Origin: an uncultured Spartobacteria bacterium
GTDB taxonomy: Bacteria > Verrucomicrobiota > Verrucomicrobiia > Chthoniobacterales > Chthoniobacteraceae
Length of the DNA stretch: 64,000 bases
NCBI GenBank assembly: GCA_903882875.1
Contig: CAIRYQ010000120.1
Location: 62,001-126,000, forward strand
Direction: 5' to 3'
The notes beneath the pieces were generated by a model, which was given only the letters and a program-made list of their open reading frames with translations, was not told where the DNA came from and did not search any database. The first letter of the stretch is position 1; the number at the start of each line of letters is the position of its first letter. Below, piece by piece: positions 7,504 to 21,471 of this stretch. Made by a program: the position numbers and the translations under genes.

Positions 7504-9258
7504 ATGCAACCGACCGAAACGATCCCGCCCGCCTCCATCGCCGGCCCCTCCGCCGTGAAGCCACCGCTCCGCAGCCACTGCCCGATCTGCGACAGCAACC
7601 GCCTCCACTATTCCTTCTCGCACCAGTCGCACCGAGTCATGCGCTGTGAAAATTGCGCGCTCATGTTCCTCAATCCGCAGCCGTCGGATCGCGAGCTTTC
7701 CGAGATCTACACCGCCGAGTATTTCCTCGGCCATGACAGCGATGAGGGCCGTCGCAATTCCAGCGAACTCAAGCGCGCCACCGCACGGCAATATCTCGCC
7801 GAACTCACGCGCTACAACGGCACACCGTCGGGCCGCCTCATTGAGGTCGGCTGCGGCGAGGGTGACTTCCTCTGCGAGGCCGAAGCCTCGGGCTACGACG
7901 TGCTCGGTGTGGAATACGCGCCCGCCGCCTGCGCGACCGCCAACAAGCGACTCCAGCGCGGACGCGTCGAGCAGGGAGAACTCGCCGACGCAAAGCTGCC
8001 CGATTCGCACTTCGACGTGTGCGTCCTCAACGACGTCATCGAACACGTCCGTGATCCCCTCGCCTTCCTTCGCGAAATCCGCCGCATCCTCCGCCCCGGC
8101 GGCGCGCTCTTCATCGCCACGCCGTGCCTCGACTCGTGGAGCGCGAAGCTCATGAAGGAACGCTGGATGGAATGGAAGCCCGAGCACCTCACCTATTTCA
8201 ACAAGGCCAACATCCAGACCGCGCTGCTGAAAGCCGGCTTCGAGGACGTGATCGTCCAGCCCGGCTGGAAAATTCTCAGCTTCGACTACGTGCAGGCGCA
8301 CTTTGAAAAATTTCCCGTCCCGCTCTTTACGCCCGCGGTGCGGCTGCTCGGAAAAATGCTCCCGTCTTCGGTGAAAAGGAAACAGCGGCGCATCGTCGCG
8401 AGCGGCATGATGGTCTTCTCTCGCAAGGCTGAGGAAACCCGCGAACGTCTCTCGGTCATCGTCCCTGCCTTCAACGAGGCCAACACGATTCGCCCGATGA
8501 TGGACGCGCTCGTCGCGAAAGAAATCGCAGGAATGGAAATCGAGATCATCGTCGTCGAAAGCAACTCGACGGACGGCACGCGCGAAATCGTGAAGCAGTA
8601 CGCCGCGCATCCGCGTGTGAAAGTGATCCTCGAGGAAAAGCCGCGAGGAAAAGGCCGCGCAGTCCGAACCGGCCTCGCTGCTGCGACCGGGAAATACGTG
8701 CTCATCCAGGATGCCGATCTCGAGTATGACATGGAGGACTACGACACGCTCGTGGGCGCGCTCGTGAGCGGACGGCACGCCTTCGTCCTCGGCTCCCGGC
8801 ACGGCGGACGCAACCTCTGGAAGATGCGCCAGTTCACCGGCCAGCGCAGCCTCAGCTCATACCTGAACCTCGGCCACTGGCTCTTCACCACGATGATCAA
8901 CGTGCTCTTTTGGAAGCGGCTCCGCGATCCGTTCACGATGTTCAAAGTCTTCCGCCGCGACTGCCTCTACGGCCTGCGATTTGAGTGCAATCGTTTCGAC
9001 TTCGATTTCGAGTTGCTCATCCGCCTCATGCAAAAGGGCTACACGCCCGCCGAGATTCCCGTGAACTACCGCTCACGCTCGTTCAAGGAAGGCAAGAAAG
9101 TCTCCATGTGGCGCGACCCGCTCACATGGCTCGCCGCGCTCGCCAGGCTGCGCACATCGAAAGTGGATCCGCTTGCCGAGATCGCGCACAGCCGCACCGC
9201 ACAGCCCGCGACGGAAGCATCTCCGCTTTCCGCGGAACCGGCGCTCGCGCACCGGTAA
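7504..9258 (+). CDS. SAM methyltransferase fused to GT2 glycosyltransferase
   Basis: 584 residues. Residues 27-60 contain a CPIC...CENC pair typical of the zinc-binding N-terminus of methyltransferases acting on sugars or lipids. Residues about 100-260 form a class I methyltransferase with LIEVGCGEGDF, VCVLNDVIEHVRDPLAFL and LRPGGALFIATP. From residue about 315 a GT2 domain follows: LSVIVPAFNEANTI, EIIVVESNSTDGT, the KPRGKGRAVRTGL loop and the catalytic acidic run QDADLEYDMEDY, ending with RDPFTMFKVFRR and YRSRSFKEGKK. The GT half resembles polyprenyl-phosphate mannose/glucose synthases but lacks clear C-terminal membrane helices. The same two activities occur in reverse order in the gene at 1-1520, so both probably serve the GT-C enzymes between them. 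Confidence 0.85.
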   Translation: MQPTETIPPASIAGPSAVKPPLRSHCPICDSNRLHYSFSHQSHRVMRCENCALMFLNPQPSDRELSEIYTAEYFLGHDSDEGRRNSSELKRATARQYLAELTRYNGTPSGRLIEVGCGEGDFLCEAEASGYDVLGVEYAPAACATANKRLQRGRVEQGELADAKLPDSHFDVCVLNDVIEHVRDPLAFLREIRRILRPGGALFIATPCLDSWSAKLMKERWMEWKPEHLTYFNKANIQTALLKAGFEDVIVQPGWKILSFDYVQAHFEKFPVPLFTPAVRLLGKMLPSSVKRKQRRIVASGMMVFSRKAEETRERLSVIVPAFNEANTIRPMMDALVAKEIAGMEIEIIVVESNSTDGTREIVKQYAAHPRVKVILEEKPRGKGRAVRTGLAAATGKYVLIQDADLEYDMEDYDTLVGALVSGRHAFVLGSRHGGRNLWKMRQFTGQRSLSSYLNLGHWLFTTMINVLFWKRLRDPFTMFKVFRRDCLYGLRFECNRFDFDFELLIRLMQKGYTPAEIPVNYRSRSFKEGKKVSMWRDPLTWLAALARLRTSKVDPLAEIAHSRTAQPATEASPLSAEPALAHR

Positions 9259-12459: not shown

Positions 12460-13869
12460 CTACTTGTAGGGCACCGTGCCCGAGGCATCCACCGTGTATT
12501 TCCACTTCGCGATGTATTCCGCGGCGGGGCGGAAGTCATCGTGCTGTTCGGCGAGCTTCGCCTTCAGCATCGCGTCCATCTTCGCCTGCAATTCCGCGTG
12601 CTCCGGCTTGCCCACGAGATTGTCGAGCTGCCACGGATCCTTCTCGTTGTCGAAAAGCAGCCACGGCCATTCGAGTTCGCGGACGTAGGTGTAACGCACA
12701 GTGCGAACGCAGCGGTATTCCCTGCCGCCGGTGCGCCGCGCGAATTCGCCGAACGGCGCATCGCACTGCACGATCGCCGCGCCGCCGGAGAGATCTTTTC
12801 CGCCGCGCATGTAGTCTGTGAAATCAAAGCCCTCGACACTCTTCGGCGCCGCCACGCCGCACAGGCTGAGCAGCGTGGGCATCACGTCCTCGGTGTTGAT
12901 AGTCCCTTCGACGCGGCGCGGTGCGATGCCGAGCTTCGCGGGCACTCGGAACAGCATCGGCACTCGCGCGGATTCCTCGTAGGGCTTCTGCTTCCGCTGC
13001 ATCGCGTGCGACGAGAGCATGTCGCCGTGATCGGACGTGAAGACGATGATCGTGTTGTCGTCCACGCCGGCATTTTCCAAAGTACCGAGCAGATCGCCGA
13101 TGCAGTCATCCAGCGCCGTGCAGTGCGCGTAGTAGCCCGCGAGGTCCACGCGTGCGCGCGCCTGTGCGATGCCATCGGCGGGCACGTTGCCGCGGAGCTT
13201 CATGTTGTCCGGCGAATACATGTCGCGGTATTTTTGCGGCGCGGTCTCGTAGGGATTGTGCGGCGGGCCCCACGCGAGCCAGAGCAGGAAGGGCTTCCCC
13301 GTTTTCGCGCGCGACTCGATGTAGCCCTGCGCGTCGCGCGTCTGCGCGATGGCGTCGTAGCCCTGCCACTCCAGCTTCTCCGGGCCATCCGCGTAATACG
13401 GCGACTTGTTGTAGGCGTGCGTGCATTCGAGCACCTTCCAGTAGTCGAATCCCTGCCGCCGCTCGCGTGGGATGAAAGCCGCGCGCCCGTGTCCGTCCAC
13501 ATGCCACTTGCCGATGCAGCCCGTGTCGTAGCCAGCGCCCCTCAGCACCTTCGCGATCGTCACGGCCTCGGGATTCAGCGGCACGTCATTGATGAAAATC
13601 CCGTGCGTGAGCGGACGCTGCCCGGTGAGCAGCGAGGCGCGCGTGGGCGAGCACACCGGCATGCCCGACACGGCCTGCGTGAAATTCACGCACTGCTTCT
13701 CCAGGCGGTCGAGGTTCGGCGTCTTTACATTCGGATCTCCTGCGAACCCGAACGCCTGCGCGCGCCACTGGTCGGCGATGATGAGCAGGATGTTCGGCGG
13801 ACGCTCAGCCGCGACAGTGCTTGAGATGCCCGCGAGGAAAAGCGAGAGCGCAGTGAAGATGCGGGTCAT
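12460..13869 (-). CDS. Secreted sulfatase (formylglycine type)
   Basis: 469 residues from ATG 13869, which gives a signal peptide (TALSLFLAGISSTVAA); a longer open frame upstream lies inside the preceding gene. Family-S1 sulfatase fold: PNILLIIADQWR supplies the metal site, CSPTRASLLTG carries the Cys (residue 73) converted to formylglycine, then GKWH, and VFTSDHGDMLSSH for the second metal ligands. It removes sulfate esters, most likely from polysaccharides, outside the cytoplasm. The usual second aspartate after the first (DD) is Gln here, as in several S1 subfamilies. It follows another sulfatase by 5 bp in the same direction, so the two are probably co-transcribed. Maturation needs an FGE or anSME from outside this window. 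Confidence 0.9.
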   Translation of the reverse strand: MTRIFTALSLFLAGISSTVAAERPPNILLIIADQWRAQAFGFAGDPNVKTPNLDRLEKQCVNFTQAVSGMPVCSPTRASLLTGQRPLTHGIFINDVPLNPEAVTIAKVLRGAGYDTGCIGKWHVDGHGRAAFIPRERRQGFDYWKVLECTHAYNKSPYYADGPEKLEWQGYDAIAQTRDAQGYIESRAKTGKPFLLWLAWGPPHNPYETAPQKYRDMYSPDNMKLRGNVPADGIAQARARVDLAGYYAHCTALDDCIGDLLGTLENAGVDDNTIIVFTSDHGDMLSSHAMQRKQKPYEESARVPMLFRVPAKLGIAPRRVEGTINTEDVMPTLLSLCGVAAPKSVEGFDFTDYMRGGKDLSGGAAIVQCDAPFGEFARRTGGREYRCVRTVRYTYVRELEWPWLLFDNEKDPWQLDNLVGKPEHAELQAKMDAMLKAKLAEQHDDFRPAAEYIAKWKYTVDASGTVPYK

Positions 13870-13874
13870 GTTTT

Positions 13875-15536
13875 TCAATCTGCGTCCTCCCCCTTCTTCT
13901 TCTTCGCGTTCGGTTTGTTGCCCGCGTCCGGTGGCAAATCTTTCAGCGCGAGCGCGCGGAATTCCTCGGCGTGCTTCTCCCACGTCGCGGCCATCTCCTT
14001 CACGCGCTCGGGCTGCTTCGCTGCGAGGTCGCTCGACTCCGCGCGGTCGGTGCGCAGGTCGTAGAGTTCCCACGGCGAATCCTTTCCGGCAGCGACGATC
14101 TTCCAGTCGCCCACACGCAACGCGCGGTTCGCCTCGTGCATCCACCACAGGTAATCGTGGGGCACCGTGTGGTCCTTCGCAAACGTCGGCACGAGGCTCC
14201 TGCCCGGCGCGGCAGGCACAGGCTTGCCCTCCCAATTTTCCAGCGGCTTGCCGCCGGCGATGTCGAGCACCGTCGGCACGATGTCAATCAAGTGCGCGGG
14301 ATTGTGCCGCAATTCGCCGCGCGCGGCGATGCCCTTCGGCCACTGCACGATGAATGGCGTCGCGATGCCGCCCTCATGCACCCACGTCTTGTGACGGCGG
14401 AACGGCGTGTTCGATGCGCTCGAAAATCCGGGCCCGAGGCACAGGAAACTGTCCGCCGAACCGAGCGCCGCGCCCGGCGCATTGCCGTCGCCGCGCACCA
14501 TGATCTCCGCGCTCGCGCCGTTGTCGGAGAGAAAAATCACGAGCGTGTTTTCCTCCGCGCTCATCGCCTTCACCTGCGCGAGCACGCGGCCGATTTCCTG
14601 ATCCATCCGATCCACCATCGCCGCGTGGATCGCCATTTTCGTCGCCTGAAACTCCCGCTGCACCGTCGTGAGTTCCGTCCACGGCATCGGGCGGTCCACC
14701 TCGCCGGGATGAATCTTCGCGAGGTCGCCCCTGAACGGATACGGCGGCCCCACCTCGCGCTCCAGCGCCGAGAGCGTCGTGTTCACGATGCCCTCCTTTG
14801 TCTGCCTCGCGTAACGCTCCTCGCGCGTGACATCCCATCCCTTGAGATATTTGTCCTTGTAGCGCGCGATGTCCTCTGCCGGCGCCTGCAACGGAAAGTG
14901 CGGCACGGTGAACGCGAGATACTCGAAGAACGGCTGGTCCGCGTATTTCTCCGCGTGCTCCTTCAGGCACTTGATCGCGTGATCCGCGAACGCTGTCGTC
15001 GTGTAGTAGCCCGTGCCCGGCGTGACGGGCGGCAGCGGCTTGTCGTCCTCGGAAAGATTGCGCGGTGCGAAGTTGTGGTTGTGATCATCGAGCACGTAGC
15101 TGTGGTCGAATCCGCACTCCGTCGGCTTTCCATCCACATGCCATTTGCCCGACTGATACGCGCGGTAGCCGAGCGGCTTCAGCATCTGCGAAAGCAACGG
15201 CGCCCACTGCGGACGCTGCCCGCGCGCGCCAGAGCCCGGCACGCCTGGCATCGCATCGCGCCGCACCGCCTGCGCGTAGTAGCCCGTGAGGATGGCCGCG
15301 CGCGAAGGCCAGCAGCGCGCGGTGTTGTAAAATTGCGTGAAGCGCAGACCGTTCGCCGCGAGCGAATCGAGATTCGGAGTCCGCACATCACCGCCGTAGC
15401 ACCCGGCATCCGAGTAGCCCATGTCATCGGCGAGGATCAGGAGGATGTTCGGACGCGCAGGGTTCGCCGCAGGCAGCAGTGCGGACGAAAGCGCGATACC
15501 GACAAGCAGGAGGAGGAACGAAATGGGGCGTTTCAT
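13875..15536 (-). CDS. Secreted arylsulfatase (formylglycine type)
   Basis: 553 residues from ATG 15536 with a signal peptide (FLLLLVGIALSSALLPAA). Motifs in order: NILLILADDMGYSD (metal ligands), CWPSRAAILTG with the formylglycine Cys at residue 75, SGKWHVDG, and LVIFLSDNGASAE. The C-terminus is Lys/Asp-rich. Closest type is the AtsA-like arylsulfatases of the PVC group. First gene of a two-sulfatase unit; different active-site neighbourhoods (CWPSR versus CSPTR) suggest different sulfated substrates. The start lies 109 bp from the divergent gene at 15646. Confidence 0.92.
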   Translation of the reverse strand: MKRPISFLLLLVGIALSSALLPAANPARPNILLILADDMGYSDAGCYGGDVRTPNLDSLAANGLRFTQFYNTARCWPSRAAILTGYYAQAVRRDAMPGVPGSGARGQRPQWAPLLSQMLKPLGYRAYQSGKWHVDGKPTECGFDHSYVLDDHNHNFAPRNLSEDDKPLPPVTPGTGYYTTTAFADHAIKCLKEHAEKYADQPFFEYLAFTVPHFPLQAPAEDIARYKDKYLKGWDVTREERYARQTKEGIVNTTLSALEREVGPPYPFRGDLAKIHPGEVDRPMPWTELTTVQREFQATKMAIHAAMVDRMDQEIGRVLAQVKAMSAEENTLVIFLSDNGASAEIMVRGDGNAPGAALGSADSFLCLGPGFSSASNTPFRRHKTWVHEGGIATPFIVQWPKGIAARGELRHNPAHLIDIVPTVLDIAGGKPLENWEGKPVPAAPGRSLVPTFAKDHTVPHDYLWWMHEANRALRVGDWKIVAAGKDSPWELYDLRTDRAESSDLAAKQPERVKEMAATWEKHAEEFRALALKDLPPDAGNKPNAKKKKGEDAD

Positions 15537-15645
15537 TCCGCGGATGAAAACCGCGGGCGGTGCGTTTGTCCCGCAAGAAACTGAATCTCGCGCGGAGAGC
15601 GCGGGCTTTCCATCCAGGACCCTGTGCGACACAAGACCCGTGCTC

Positions 15646-16008
15646 ATGAATCCCGAATTTGAAACCGTCTTCACCAGCCTGCGCGACATCCTGCGCAGGC
15701 ATTCAAAAGGCCTCACCGTCGCAGATGACACGCCGACGCGTTACACTCTGAAAGGCGGCTGCCATCCCGCCCACAAGAAGCCGATGGACATCGCCTGGAT
15801 CCGAGTCGGAAAAAATTACGTCAGCTTCCACCACATGGGCGTCTATGCGTGTGAAGCACTGCGCGACAGCCTGTCGCCCGCGTTGAAGGCCCGGATGCAG
15901 GGCAAGGCGTGCTTCAATTTCAAGAAGCCCGACGAAGCGCTGTTCAAGGAGCTGGAGCAGATGACCGTGGACGGCTTCGCGGCATTTCGGAAAGCCGGGT
16001 ACCTCTGA
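15646..16008 (+). CDS. Small DUF1801-like protein
   Basis: 120 residues from ATG 15646; longer upstream starts overlap the sulfatase promoter region. It contains IAWIRVGKNYVSFHHMGVY near the middle and a C-terminal AAFRKAGYL, the layout of the small alpha/beta DUF1801 (YdhG-like) proteins, whose biochemical role is not established. No signal peptide. It is 99 bp upstream of the dihydrouridine synthase gene on the same strand and may share its transcript. Confidence 0.65.
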   Translation: MNPEFETVFTSLRDILRRHSKGLTVADDTPTRYTLKGGCHPAHKKPMDIAWIRVGKNYVSFHHMGVYACEALRDSLSPALKARMQGKACFNFKKPDEALFKELEQMTVDGFAAFRKAGYL

Positions 16009-17103: not shown

Positions 17104-17260
17104 TCCGCCGGGGTGTGACGGGCGGCCGGCGAGTCCCATTCCGCCGCGGGCGGAGTCCTGCGAGGTGCCACGGAGAACCCCGCGCACCGCGGGCCGGGCG
17201 CCGGCATGGTGCGGCCATTCGCTCCGCCTTTGCGGAGCTTCGCTGGATGCTTCAGGGCAT

Positions 17261-17617
17261 CCCCCGGTTTCTCCGGGGGCTTCGCCGGCTCGTTCGGCGA
17301 CGCTCCCGGCTGCCCCGGCGAACCCCCCGGATTTTCCGGGGGGTTCCTCGGATCGTTCAGTGAATCCCCCAGCTTCTCCGGGGGATTCCCCGTCTGGCCC
17401 GACGAAGCCCCCAGTGTTTCCCGGGGTTTCCCCCGCTGGATCGGCGAATCCCCCAGTCTTTCCGGGGGCTTCCACGGATGGCTCTGTGAACCCCCCTCCC
17501 TATCCGGGGGATTCCCTCGCTGGTTCGACGAAGCCCCCACTTTCTCCGGGGACTTCCACGGATGGGCGGATGGAGCCCCCATTTTATCCGGGGGCTTATT
17601 TTCTGGACTTTTTGAAG
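17261..17617. repeat. 42-bp tandem hairpin repeat array
   Basis: Eight 42-bp units, each opening with CCCCC, and one 21-bp half unit at 17303-17323. Full units start at 17261, 17324, 17366, 17408, 17450, 17492, 17534 and 17576. Most contain a local palindrome such as CCCCCGG-N5-CCGGGGG, so the strand would fold into a row of evenly spaced hairpins. All three plus-strand frames are almost open and code for 14-residue repeats (for example PSLSGGF plus HGWLCEP), a by-product of the 42-bp period. The remaining DNA in the 17104-17715 gap shows no gene. The array precedes the gene at 17716. Confidence 0.9.
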
Positions 17618-18717: not shown

Positions 18718-21471
18718 CTACCACGCAGACTTGGCCAGCACGCAGCGGAAGCCGCTGCGGTTGTCGTGAAATGAAGCGGGAGCGTGACCGCGGCTGGATG
18801 ACAGCAGAGAACCGCGACTATGGTTGATGAACGAAGCGCCGCGCATCACCCGGTATTTGTGTTCCGCGTTCAACCAGTCCTCGCACCACTGCGACACGTT
18901 ACCCCCCATATCGTAAAGGCCATACGCATTGGCGGGGAAGCTCCCCACCGGTGAGGTCGTCGCAAAGCGATCTGTGTAGCCTTCGATCCAGGGCTGATCC
19001 TTCGTTTTGTCTTTGTCGTCCTTCGGAAATTTCGCGTGAAACGTCTCGTCCGCGTAATTCCCAACAATTGTTGTTGGCGGCCAGTCCTTGCCCCACGGGA
19101 AATCCACCGTGTTTTCCCCGCTCTTCTCCGCAGGCGTCGCGCCCACCTCGGGCGGCAGGCCCACGGCCCAACTCCATTCCTCATCGGTCGGCAGCCGATA
19201 CCTCAGCCCCGGCGGCAGTATCCCCCCGATGGTTTCCTTTGCCGTGAGCCACCGGCAGAACGCCTGCGCGTCCTCCCAGCTCACGCCGACGACGGGATGA
19301 TCCGGTTCCCGCCCAACGGGCACGCCGTCCCGCTCCTGCGTCTTCCATGAGTCGTCCGCCTTCGGGGTCACAGCCGCATACGCCGCATAGTCCACCATCC
19401 GCACATCCCACACGCTGAAGAGCACGTCCGTGCCGGGCACGGGGACGAATTTTATGCCGCGGGAATTGACAAACGGGGCGTCCTTGGTCGCGGCGGGAAG
19501 GTGCGCGGCGCCGGGCTTGTCCAGCGGCGTATAATCGATGTCGCGGAAGTAGCTATTGGCTGTGGCCGTTACTTGCACCATGCCCGGTTCGGTGACCGTG
19601 CTGTCGTGCATGGTGCCCAAGATTGCACCATCGAGCGAGGCCGTGATTTCTTCTCCGATTGTTCTCAGTTCCAATTTCACCCATTCGTCCGGCCCGTAAT
19701 CGCGAGGCAGCGGCCATGATTGGAGCTCCCGCGCCAGTCCATCATTCATCACCCTCAGGCGGACCAGCTTTTTCTGAAAATCGAGAACCAGATTGTAATT
19801 GCGCTCTCGATTTTCGGGCGTGCCAAATCGTAAAGACAGGCGCGGGGCGATGGCATCCGGGTTGGTCCGGATGGATGCGCGGACGATGGCATCGCGGCTC
19901 CTGTTCGAGGCCCAGTTGAGGCCACCCTTTTTAAGGTGCAACGCGTTGTCCACCCACTCGATTCCGGGCATAGGATTGATGAACTGCACCGGCGAATCAA
20001 AGAGCCTGATCGCACCGCGTTCGAGAATGGCGGCGGAGGTTGGAGGCGAGGAGACTTGGGGACTGGGAGGCGGGGAGACGGCGGAAGATGCCTGCGAGGA
20101 TGGCGCGAGGACGCAGCGGAAGCCGATGTAGAGATAGCGAGATGCGGATGCGAGGTGAAAGCGATGCGAAGAGAGGAGAAAGCCGCGGACGCCACCATCC
20201 CATGGGGAACCGCGGACCACACGGTCCTTGTGATCCTTGTCGTACCAATCCTCGCACCACTGCCACACGTTGCCTCCGACGTCGTAAAGGCCATACGCAT
20301 TCGCAGGGAAACTCCCCACCGGCGAGGTCGTCGCATAGCCATCGTCGTATCCCGCGATCCAAGGCTGATCCTTCTCTTTGTATTTCGAGTCCTTCGGAAA
20401 TTTCGTGTGAAACGTCTCGTCCGCGTAGTTGCCCACCTTCCCGGTGGGCGGCCAGTCCTTGCCCCACGGAAAATCCACGCTGTTCTTCTCGTTCTTTTCT
20501 TCCGGCGTCGCGCCCAGCTCGCGCGGCAGTCCCACCGCCCAGCTCCATTCCTCATCGCTCGGCAGCCGATATTTGAAGCCTTTCGGCAGCTTGCCTTCGG
20601 CGCTCTCCTTTTCCGTCAGCCATTGGCAGAAGCCCTGCGCATCCTCCCAGCTCACGCCCACCACGGGGTGGTCCGGTTCGCGCCCTACAGGCACGCCGTC
20701 CCTCTGCATCGTCATCCATGCGCCGTCCACCTTGTTCATCCGCGCATACGCCGCGTAGTCCACCACCCGCGTGTCCCACACGCTGAAGAGCGCCTGCGTG
20801 CCGGGCACGGGGACGAATTTCATGCCCAGCGTGTTCACGAATGGCGTATCCTTCGTGGCTGTGGCAGGCGAGACTGCGGTCGCCGTGGCAGCCTGCGGTG
20901 CCTGCGCTGCCCGCCCGCCCTTGTCCCTTTTCATGCGCCAGATGATTCCGCCGACCAGGAGCAAAGCCGCAAGGAGCAACGTTCCGATGAGCGCGAATTT
21001 GCCGCCGCGGCGCGGCTGCTTCCCGGAGGCAGTGCCGGCGGGAATGGCAGCCGCCGGTGCGGATTCACGCGCGCGCCCGAGGGAGCCGAGAATCGTGCCC
21101 GCCAGCTTCTCCAAGTGGATTTGCAGCGGAGGAGGAAAGCCATCCATCCGATGGGCGGCGGAGATGAAATACTCCATGGCCTTCGTCGGCGACACGTCCT
21201 CGATGCGAAAGGGAATGATGGTCATCCCTCTTGCAACCGCCCGCTCCACTTCGCGACGGACGTGAGGGGATTCATTCGCATGACGGGAGAAGACGATCAC
21301 CATGACCCGGCAGGCCGCAATGCCACGCAGGATTCCATCGGCCCATTCCTCACCGGGCAGGATGTCCCGCGGGGCCACCCAGCACCTCAGCCCATGCTGC
21401 TCCAAGACCGCGCAGGCGGCACCCGCCGCCGCCTTGTCCTTGGATGAATAGCTGATGAAGACCTCGGGCAT
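18718..21471 (-). CDS. TIR - membrane helix - FGE-like - lectin-like - FGE-like protein
   Basis: 917 residues. Residues 1-130 are a TIR domain (EVFISYSSKDKAAAG, RCWVAPRDILPGEEWADGI, VMVIVFSRHA). A Gly/Arg-rich linker leads to one membrane helix (about 155-180). Residues about 210-455 and 664-912 are two formylglycine-generating-enzyme-like (SUMF1, C-type-lectin-fold) domains, each with HPVVGVSWEDAQ.FC and WCEDW, ending GFRCVLA. Between them (about 485-660) is a concanavalin-like beta domain. Both FGE domains lack the catalytic cysteine pair, so they are probably binding modules displayed outside, with the TIR inside. Their last loops differ strongly from each other. A truncated kinase gene lies just upstream. 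Confidence 0.88.
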   Translation of the reverse strand: MPEVFISYSSKDKAAAGAACAVLEQHGLRCWVAPRDILPGEEWADGILRGIAACRVMVIVFSRHANESPHVRREVERAVARGMTIIPFRIEDVSPTKAMEYFISAAHRMDGFPPPLQIHLEKLAGTILGSLGRARESAPAAAIPAGTASGKQPRRGGKFALIGTLLLAALLLVGGIIWRMKRDKGGRAAQAPQAATATAVSPATATKDTPFVNTLGMKFVPVPGTQALFSVWDTRVVDYAAYARMNKVDGAWMTMQRDGVPVGREPDHPVVGVSWEDAQGFCQWLTEKESAEGKLPKGFKYRLPSDEEWSWAVGLPRELGATPEEKNEKNSVDFPWGKDWPPTGKVGNYADETFHTKFPKDSKYKEKDQPWIAGYDDGYATTSPVGSFPANAYGLYDVGGNVWQWCEDWYDKDHKDRVVRGSPWDGGVRGFLLSSHRFHLASASRYLYIGFRCVLAPSSQASSAVSPPPSPQVSSPPTSAAILERGAIRLFDSPVQFINPMPGIEWVDNALHLKKGGLNWASNRSRDAIVRASIRTNPDAIAPRLSLRFGTPENRERNYNLVLDFQKKLVRLRVMNDGLARELQSWPLPRDYGPDEWVKLELRTIGEEITASLDGAILGTMHDSTVTEPGMVQVTATANSYFRDIDYTPLDKPGAAHLPAATKDAPFVNSRGIKFVPVPGTDVLFSVWDVRMVDYAAYAAVTPKADDSWKTQERDGVPVGREPDHPVVGVSWEDAQAFCRWLTAKETIGGILPPGLRYRLPTDEEWSWAVGLPPEVGATPAEKSGENTVDFPWGKDWPPTTIVGNYADETFHAKFPKDDKDKTKDQPWIEGYTDRFATTSPVGSFPANAYGLYDMGGNVSQWCEDWLNAEHKYRVMRGASFINHSRGSLLSSSRGHAPASFHDNRSGFRCVLAKSAW

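What the first reader, a model, noticed from the sequence alone, without database searches (positions are those of the whole stretch)
18718..21471. TIR protein displaying two inactive FGE/C-type-lectin domains
TIR inside, one membrane helix, then FGE-like, concanavalin-like and FGE-like domains outside. Both FGE domains lack the catalytic cysteines. This looks like an outside-in sensor with a TIR output, an architecture not matching a known defence class.
Basis: partly seen in the sequence, partly recalled or inferred. Interest (0 to 1): 0.65.

Follow-up and report, generated by a model that had tools for sequence, protein, structure and literature searches.

The report
TIR receptor with DGR-written binding faces
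A bacterial membrane protein joins an inside TIR domain, intact at the one catalytic residue checked, to two outside lectin-like domains whose binding faces carry the mutation fingerprint of a bacterial "diversity generator" (a DGR), although no such generator was found in this genome.

Summary
In detail: one intact 917-aa ORF encodes TIR (Glu74 present), one transmembrane helix, an FGE-like domain, a concanavalin-like domain (nearest fold CBM66) and a second FGE-like domain. Both FGE domains lack the catalytic cysteines. Each FGE domain ends in a 40-residue segment matching, slot for slot, the variable regions that diversity-generating retroelements (DGRs) rewrite in related Verrucomicrobiota. 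At the 15 slots where a real template carries AAY/GAY codons, both segments have only pyrimidine-ending codons (30/30, P about 8e-10 against the rest of the gene) and no K/E/Q/M/W; the synonymous test alone also holds. Paralogues on kinase-type receptors in this genome share it; other FGE paralogues do not. No DGR reverse transcriptase or template was found in the 96%-complete genome, and constant positions have drifted, so the diversity looks inherited and probably frozen. The ectodomain belongs to a Ser/Thr-kinase receptor family, the TIR to a TIR-TM-X family; this was the only fusion of the two detected in 213 genomes of the order (limited-depth search). Most likely a receptor turning ligand binding into TIR NAD+ cleavage or signalling; ligand, activity and any defence role are untested. 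New variant of a known kind.

The parts
18718..21471 (-). whole gene: TIR-TM-FGE-ConA-FGE receptor, 917 aa
   Evidence: intact ORF; Pfam
21082..21471 (-). TIR domain, residues 1-130
   Evidence: Pfam TIR_2 E 5.9e-22; 19-member alignment
21250..21252 (-). codon of Glu74, the putative catalytic Glu of the TIR NADase
   Evidence: invariant in 19 TIRs; aligned with Cat1 DELEQA Glu
20941..21000 (-). transmembrane helix, about residues 158-177
   Evidence: hydropathy, single peak
20098..20859 (-). FGE-like (C-type-lectin superfold) domain 1, residues 205-458
   Evidence: Pfam; AlphaFold2 pLDDT 96 and PDB matches incl. 2y3c
20104..20223 (-). VR1: DGR-type variable region of FGE1, residues 417-456 (RVVRG...GFRCVLA)
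   Evidence: 15/15 Y-ending codons at template-A slots; synonymous test
19516..20031 (-). concanavalin-like (CBM66/LamG-like) domain, residues 481-652
   Evidence: profile match to CBM66; fold match; shared with kinase receptors
18733..19491 (-). FGE-like domain 2, residues 661-913
   Evidence: Pfam
18733..18852 (-). VR2: DGR-type variable region of FGE2, residues 874-913 (RVMRG...GFRCVLA)
   Evidence: 15/15 Y-ending codons at template-A slots

Best explanation
It is a single-pass inner-membrane receptor. The ectodomain, two FGE/C-type-lectin domains around a CBM66-like domain, binds a ligand in the periplasm through the two variable faces; ligand-driven clustering brings the cytoplasmic TIR domains together, which then cleave NAD+ or make an NAD-derived signal, either to slow or kill the cell or to signal. 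The binding faces were written by a diversity-generating retroelement (adenine-directed mutagenesis from a template) in an ancestor and now look fixed, because no DGR reverse transcriptase or template was found and the constant positions have drifted. The gene arose by joining a TIR-TM module to the ectodomain of a Ser/Thr-kinase receptor family. Shown: domains, presence of Glu74, DGR codon signature, homology of ectodomain to kinase receptors, no detected RT/template. Inferred: topology, ligand binding, TIR activity, clustering, frozen state, biological outcome.
For: Domains and folds. Glu74. DGR signature: 30/30 Y-ending codons at template-A slots in VR1+VR2 (Fisher 8e-10 vs rest of gene; four-fold codons only, 12/12, Fisher 9e-5); five own-genome VRs 74/75 and four-fold 28/29 vs 34% in FGE bodies, Fisher 7.5e-12 (these five share ancestry, so P values overstate); dN in the VR several-fold above the FGE body. 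Bona fide DGRs with the same FGE subfamily and VR position: L144, L168, L172 have 16/31, 15/27, 22/26 mismatches at template-A sites and 0 at non-A sites; L144 FGE about 54% identical to the window's. Other paralogues without it: C35 8/15, C120b 6/15. No DGR RT; no template. Drift: VR1 vs VR2 differ at 22 of 72 bases of constant codons. Kinase kinship: G024 kinase 54% over residues 156-653.
Against: No TIR activity, ligand or phenotype tested. The charge rule does not decide topology for this protein. The genome is a 129-contig assembly, 96% complete, so a DGR could lie in the missing part. Slots were taken from one template (L144) and the five VRs are related. FGE loops may favour NNY residues by themselves (L045 scores 15/15 with no DGR known), although the synonymous test does not depend on that. 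Neighbourhood gives no defence support.
Confidence: 0.6

Rival explanations
1. Same receptor, but the DGR is still active: reverse transcriptase and template lie in the unassembled 4% of the genome and keep rewriting the two binding faces.
For: Intact codon signature in both VRs; contigs of two VR-bearing kinase-type paralogues start abruptly in shared sequence, so repeats broke the assembly there; DGRs exist in the same taxonomic family.
Against: No DGR RT in own genome nor in the nine other sampled genomes of the genus; constant positions of VR1, VR2 and C110b differ from one another (22/72, 13/72 bases for VR1 vs VR2 and vs C110b), unlike bona fide pairs with 0 non-A mismatches in L144, L168, L172.
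Confidence: 0.12
2. A receptor for ordinary environmental or envelope sugars: the TIR makes a regulatory NAD-derived signal in nutrient or cell-envelope sensing, not defence.
For: CBM66/galectin-like domain, kinase relatives with the same ectodomain, metabolic neighbours including two sulfatases.
Against: TIR outputs known so far in bacteria are mostly defence or virulence (general knowledge); diversified faces fit a changing ligand better than a fixed nutrient.
Confidence: 0.3
3. The VR segments are simply fast-evolving lectin loops, and the Y-ending codons come from loop residue preference and codon usage; no DGR was ever involved.
For: Loop residues N, D, G, S, Y, H, F are all NNY-encodable; one relative scores 15/15 with no DGR known (L045).
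Against: Synonymous third-base bias at four-fold codons, 28/29 vs 34% in bodies and 57% elsewhere in the VR; mismatches between VR1 and C110b at slots by codon position 9/8/1 against 20/30/54 in the body; exact slot correspondence with real DGR templates of the same FGE subfamily.
Confidence: 0.08

Closest known systems
DGR variable proteins with kinase- or TIR-CLec architecture in cyanobacteria (PMC7517822) and Thiohalocapsa (PMC10907252)
   Same: CLec/FGE-type domain carrying a variable region, fused to Ser/Thr kinase, TIR or other signalling/effector domains
   Different: Here membrane-spanning, two VRs in one chain around a CBM66-like domain, Verrucomicrobiota, and no RT or template detected
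Ser/Thr-kinase receptors of Verrucomicrobiota with TM-FGE-ConA ectodomain (G024:C18, L125)
   Same: Ectodomain 54% identical over residues 156-653
   Different: Output is a protein kinase (Pfam Pkinase E 8e-47), not TIR
TIR-TM-X proteins of Verrucomicrobiota (L060 TIR-TM-SBP_bac_3, L062 TIR-TM-Sel1, L076 TIR-TM-WD40)
   Same: N-terminal TIR about 50% identical, Glu74 kept, one TM helix at the same place
   Different: Other ectodomains; none of the 22 TIR ORFs retrieved has FGE except the window's
Formylglycine-generating enzyme (SUMF1) and Treponema TvpA (2y3c)
   Same: Fold
   Different: Catalytic cysteines missing; like TvpA, a binding scaffold
Thoeris / CBASS / CRISPR TIR effectors
   Same: TIR domain with the conserved Glu
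   Different: Soluble, partnered systems triggered by nucleotide signals or intracellular sensors; no partner genes here

Membership tests
DGR variable protein | variable region in a CLec-fold domain at the position DGRs rewrite | tested here: met
   slot-for-slot match with TR/VR of L144, L168, L172
DGR variable protein | substitutions confined to template-adenine positions | tested here: inconclusive
   no template for this gene; indirect signature strong (30/30 NNY) but constant positions have also drifted
DGR variable protein | DGR reverse transcriptase and template repeat in the genome | tested here: not met
   only RT is C116, motif QGPLSS, not xGxxxSQ; no template; assembly 96% complete
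TIR NADase | TIR fold with catalytic Glu | tested here: met
   Pfam E 5.9e-22; E74 invariant and aligned with Cat1
TIR NADase | NAD+ cleavage or cyclic product | not testable with these tools
   needs an assay
Formylglycine-generating enzyme | active-site CxxxxC cysteines | tested here: not met
   no cysteine in that segment of either domain; a gene with SWMCAENYC is elsewhere in the genome
Known anti-phage defence system | match to a catalogued system with its partner genes | tested here: not met
   weak TIR-only PADLOC hits; no partner genes among nine flanking ORFs scanned
TIR-TM-X receptors of Verrucomicrobiota | N-terminal TIR, one TM helix, separate C-terminal domain | tested here: met
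Kinase receptors with FGE-ConA ectodomain | N-terminal Hanks-type kinase | tested here: not met
   TIR in its place; ectodomain shared

The most novel reading that the evidence does not exclude
An adaptive TIR receptor: a still-active DGR outside the assembled contigs rewrites both periplasmic binding faces, and the same pool of diversified ectodomains is shared between kinase-output and TIR-output receptors, giving one diversified recognition repertoire with interchangeable outputs.
Probability: 0.1. Interest if true: 0.85.

Novelty: new variant of a known kind. Interest (0 to 1): 0.6.

Why it matters
It shows a TIR output attached to the same DGR-marked ectodomain that sits on kinase receptors, so recognition and output look separately exchangeable in these bacteria. 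It also gives a clear case of DGR-written binding faces in a genome with no DGR detected: diversity made by the mutator may outlive it and be kept as fixed specificities, much as germline receptors are. The idea can be tested directly by ligand screens on the two VR domains and NADase assays. If confirmed, DGR surveys that start from the reverse transcriptase would miss such orphan targets.

Tried and rejected
FGE enzyme for the neighbouring sulfatases: rejected, cysteines absent and a candidate true FGE lies elsewhere. Active DGR in this genome: not found by Pfam RVT_1, by a close DGR RT as query, or by DNA search for a template. The C116 RT as the DGR RT: rejected on its motif and best NCBIfam matches to group II/Drt-type models, all below cut-off. 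Known defence system: PADLOC gave only weak TIR-domain hits. Search for further TIR-FGE fusions: none seen in 213 genomes of the order, but only up to four candidates per genome were scored; a phylum search failed for a technical reason and was not repeated. A full-length structure model was not made; the two jobs went to the ConA and FGE1 domains.

Full report
Observation. The ORF at 18718-21471 (-) is intact, 917 aa. Pfam finds TIR_2 at 4-95 (5.9e-22) and two FGE-sulfatase domains (2.2e-64). A single hydrophobic helix lies at about 158-177. The middle domain, which Pfam does not name, is concanavalin-like: its profile matches levanase CBM66 structures (2e-6), and its model (pLDDT 89.4) matches CBM66 and galectins. 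FGE1 folds with pLDDT 96 and matches FGE enzymes and the Treponema DGR variable protein. Neither FGE domain has the catalytic cysteine pair.

TIR and topology. Glu74 is invariant in 19 related TIRs and lines up with the Glu of Cat1; activity is not shown. The charge rule is ambiguous for this protein. Relatives decide for N-in: most have more positive N-flanks, kinase relatives need cytoplasmic ATP (general knowledge), and one TIR relative carries a periplasmic-type solute-binding domain. 'Outside' is then most likely the periplasm.

Two parent families. The ectodomain is that of Ser/Thr-kinase receptors: the closest relative outside the genome is a kinase, 54% identical over residues 156-653, and the ConA module aligns with kinase receptors of other genomes. 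In the own genome the closest paralogues are on C110 and C111; both are cut at contig starts, so their kinase is inferred from the tail sequence only. The TIR is closest to TIR-TM-X proteins with other C-terminal domains. Of the ORFs retrieved up to, 22 hold this TIR and 182 an FGE domain; only the window's holds both. A search of 213 genomes of the order found no second one, with at most four candidates scored per genome.

DGR signature. The FGE C-terminal segments RVxRG...GFRCVLA diverge much more than the rest: VR1 against VR2 has dN 0.78 in the segment and 0.16 in the body. In Verrucomicrobiota the same domain subfamily is a real DGR target: L144, L168 and L172 have template/variable pairs with 16/31, 15/27 and 22/26 mismatches at template adenines and none elsewhere, and L144 and L172 have a DGR-motif RT nearby. 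L144's FGE is about 54% identical to the window's. At the 15 slots where L144's template has AAY/GAY, VR1 and VR2 each have 15/15 pyrimidine-ending codons and no K/E/Q/M/W. Against the rest of the gene this is P about 8e-10; four-fold degenerate codons alone, 12/12, P 9e-5. For five VRs of the genome, 74/75, and 28/29 at four-fold codons against 34% in bodies. Those five are related, so pooled P values overstate. VR1 and C110b differ at slots 9, 8 and 1 times at codon positions 1, 2 and 3; in the body 20, 30 and 54. Non-DGR paralogues score 6-8 of 15. One caution: L045 scores 15 with no DGR known.

No generator. The only RT in the assembly is on C116, with motif QGPLSS rather than the DGR xGxxxSQ; a close DGR RT finds nothing better; no template turned up by protein or DNA. 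The genome is 96% complete. Constant codons differ between VR1 and VR2 at 22 of 72 bases and between VR1 and C110b at 13 of 72, whereas the three clean real pairs differ at none of their non-adenine sites. So the VRs were not recently rewritten from one template: most likely inherited and frozen, though separate templates or an unassembled DGR are not excluded.

Mechanism and context. Best reading: periplasmic ligand binding by the two VR faces, clustering, TIR NAD+ cleavage or signalling. Binding, clustering, activity and outcome are inferences. Neighbours are arginine decarboxylase, two sulfatases and tRNA-dihydrouridine synthase; PADLOC shows no partner system, so a defence role is possible but unsupported by context.

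Known work. Kinase-CLec and TIR-like DGR targets are reported in cyanobacteria (PMC7517822) and TIR-containing targets in Thiohalocapsa and relatives (PMC10907252); FGS domains with DGRs in ternary conflict systems (PMC7159879). No paper combining TIR, Verrucomicrobi-, receptor and NADase was found in the library. Hence a new variant of a known kind.

Noticed in passing
L121 (G002:C71:74000-92000), TR 8748-8880, VRs 7069, 11571, 17845: A DGR in the same taxonomic family with three FGE variable regions, at least two on ORFs with a caspase-like N-terminal part (by eye, not scanned); 16-22 of 31 template adenines changed, 3 of 102 other sites.
   Followed up: partly
L060, L062, L071, L076, L061, L080: TIR proteins of Verrucomicrobiota with varied C-terminal parts: SBP_bac_3, Sel1, NADase_transloc F5/8C, WD40, FHA, protein kinase.
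   Followed up: partly
L001:597-2657 (G000:C116): 686-aa reverse transcriptase, not DGR; weak matches to group II, Drt and AbiA models below cut-off; preceded by tandem repeats.
   Followed up: partly
window 12460-15731: Two sulfatase genes on the minus strand; a candidate true FGE with both cysteines lies on another contig (L028).
   Followed up: partly
window 17255-17597: GC-rich tandem repeat array (periods 42/84/126) beside the dus gene.
   Followed up: no
L020 and L021 (G000:C110, C111): Both contigs begin inside the same near-identical sequence, an assembly break that cuts two VR-bearing paralogues.
   Followed up: no
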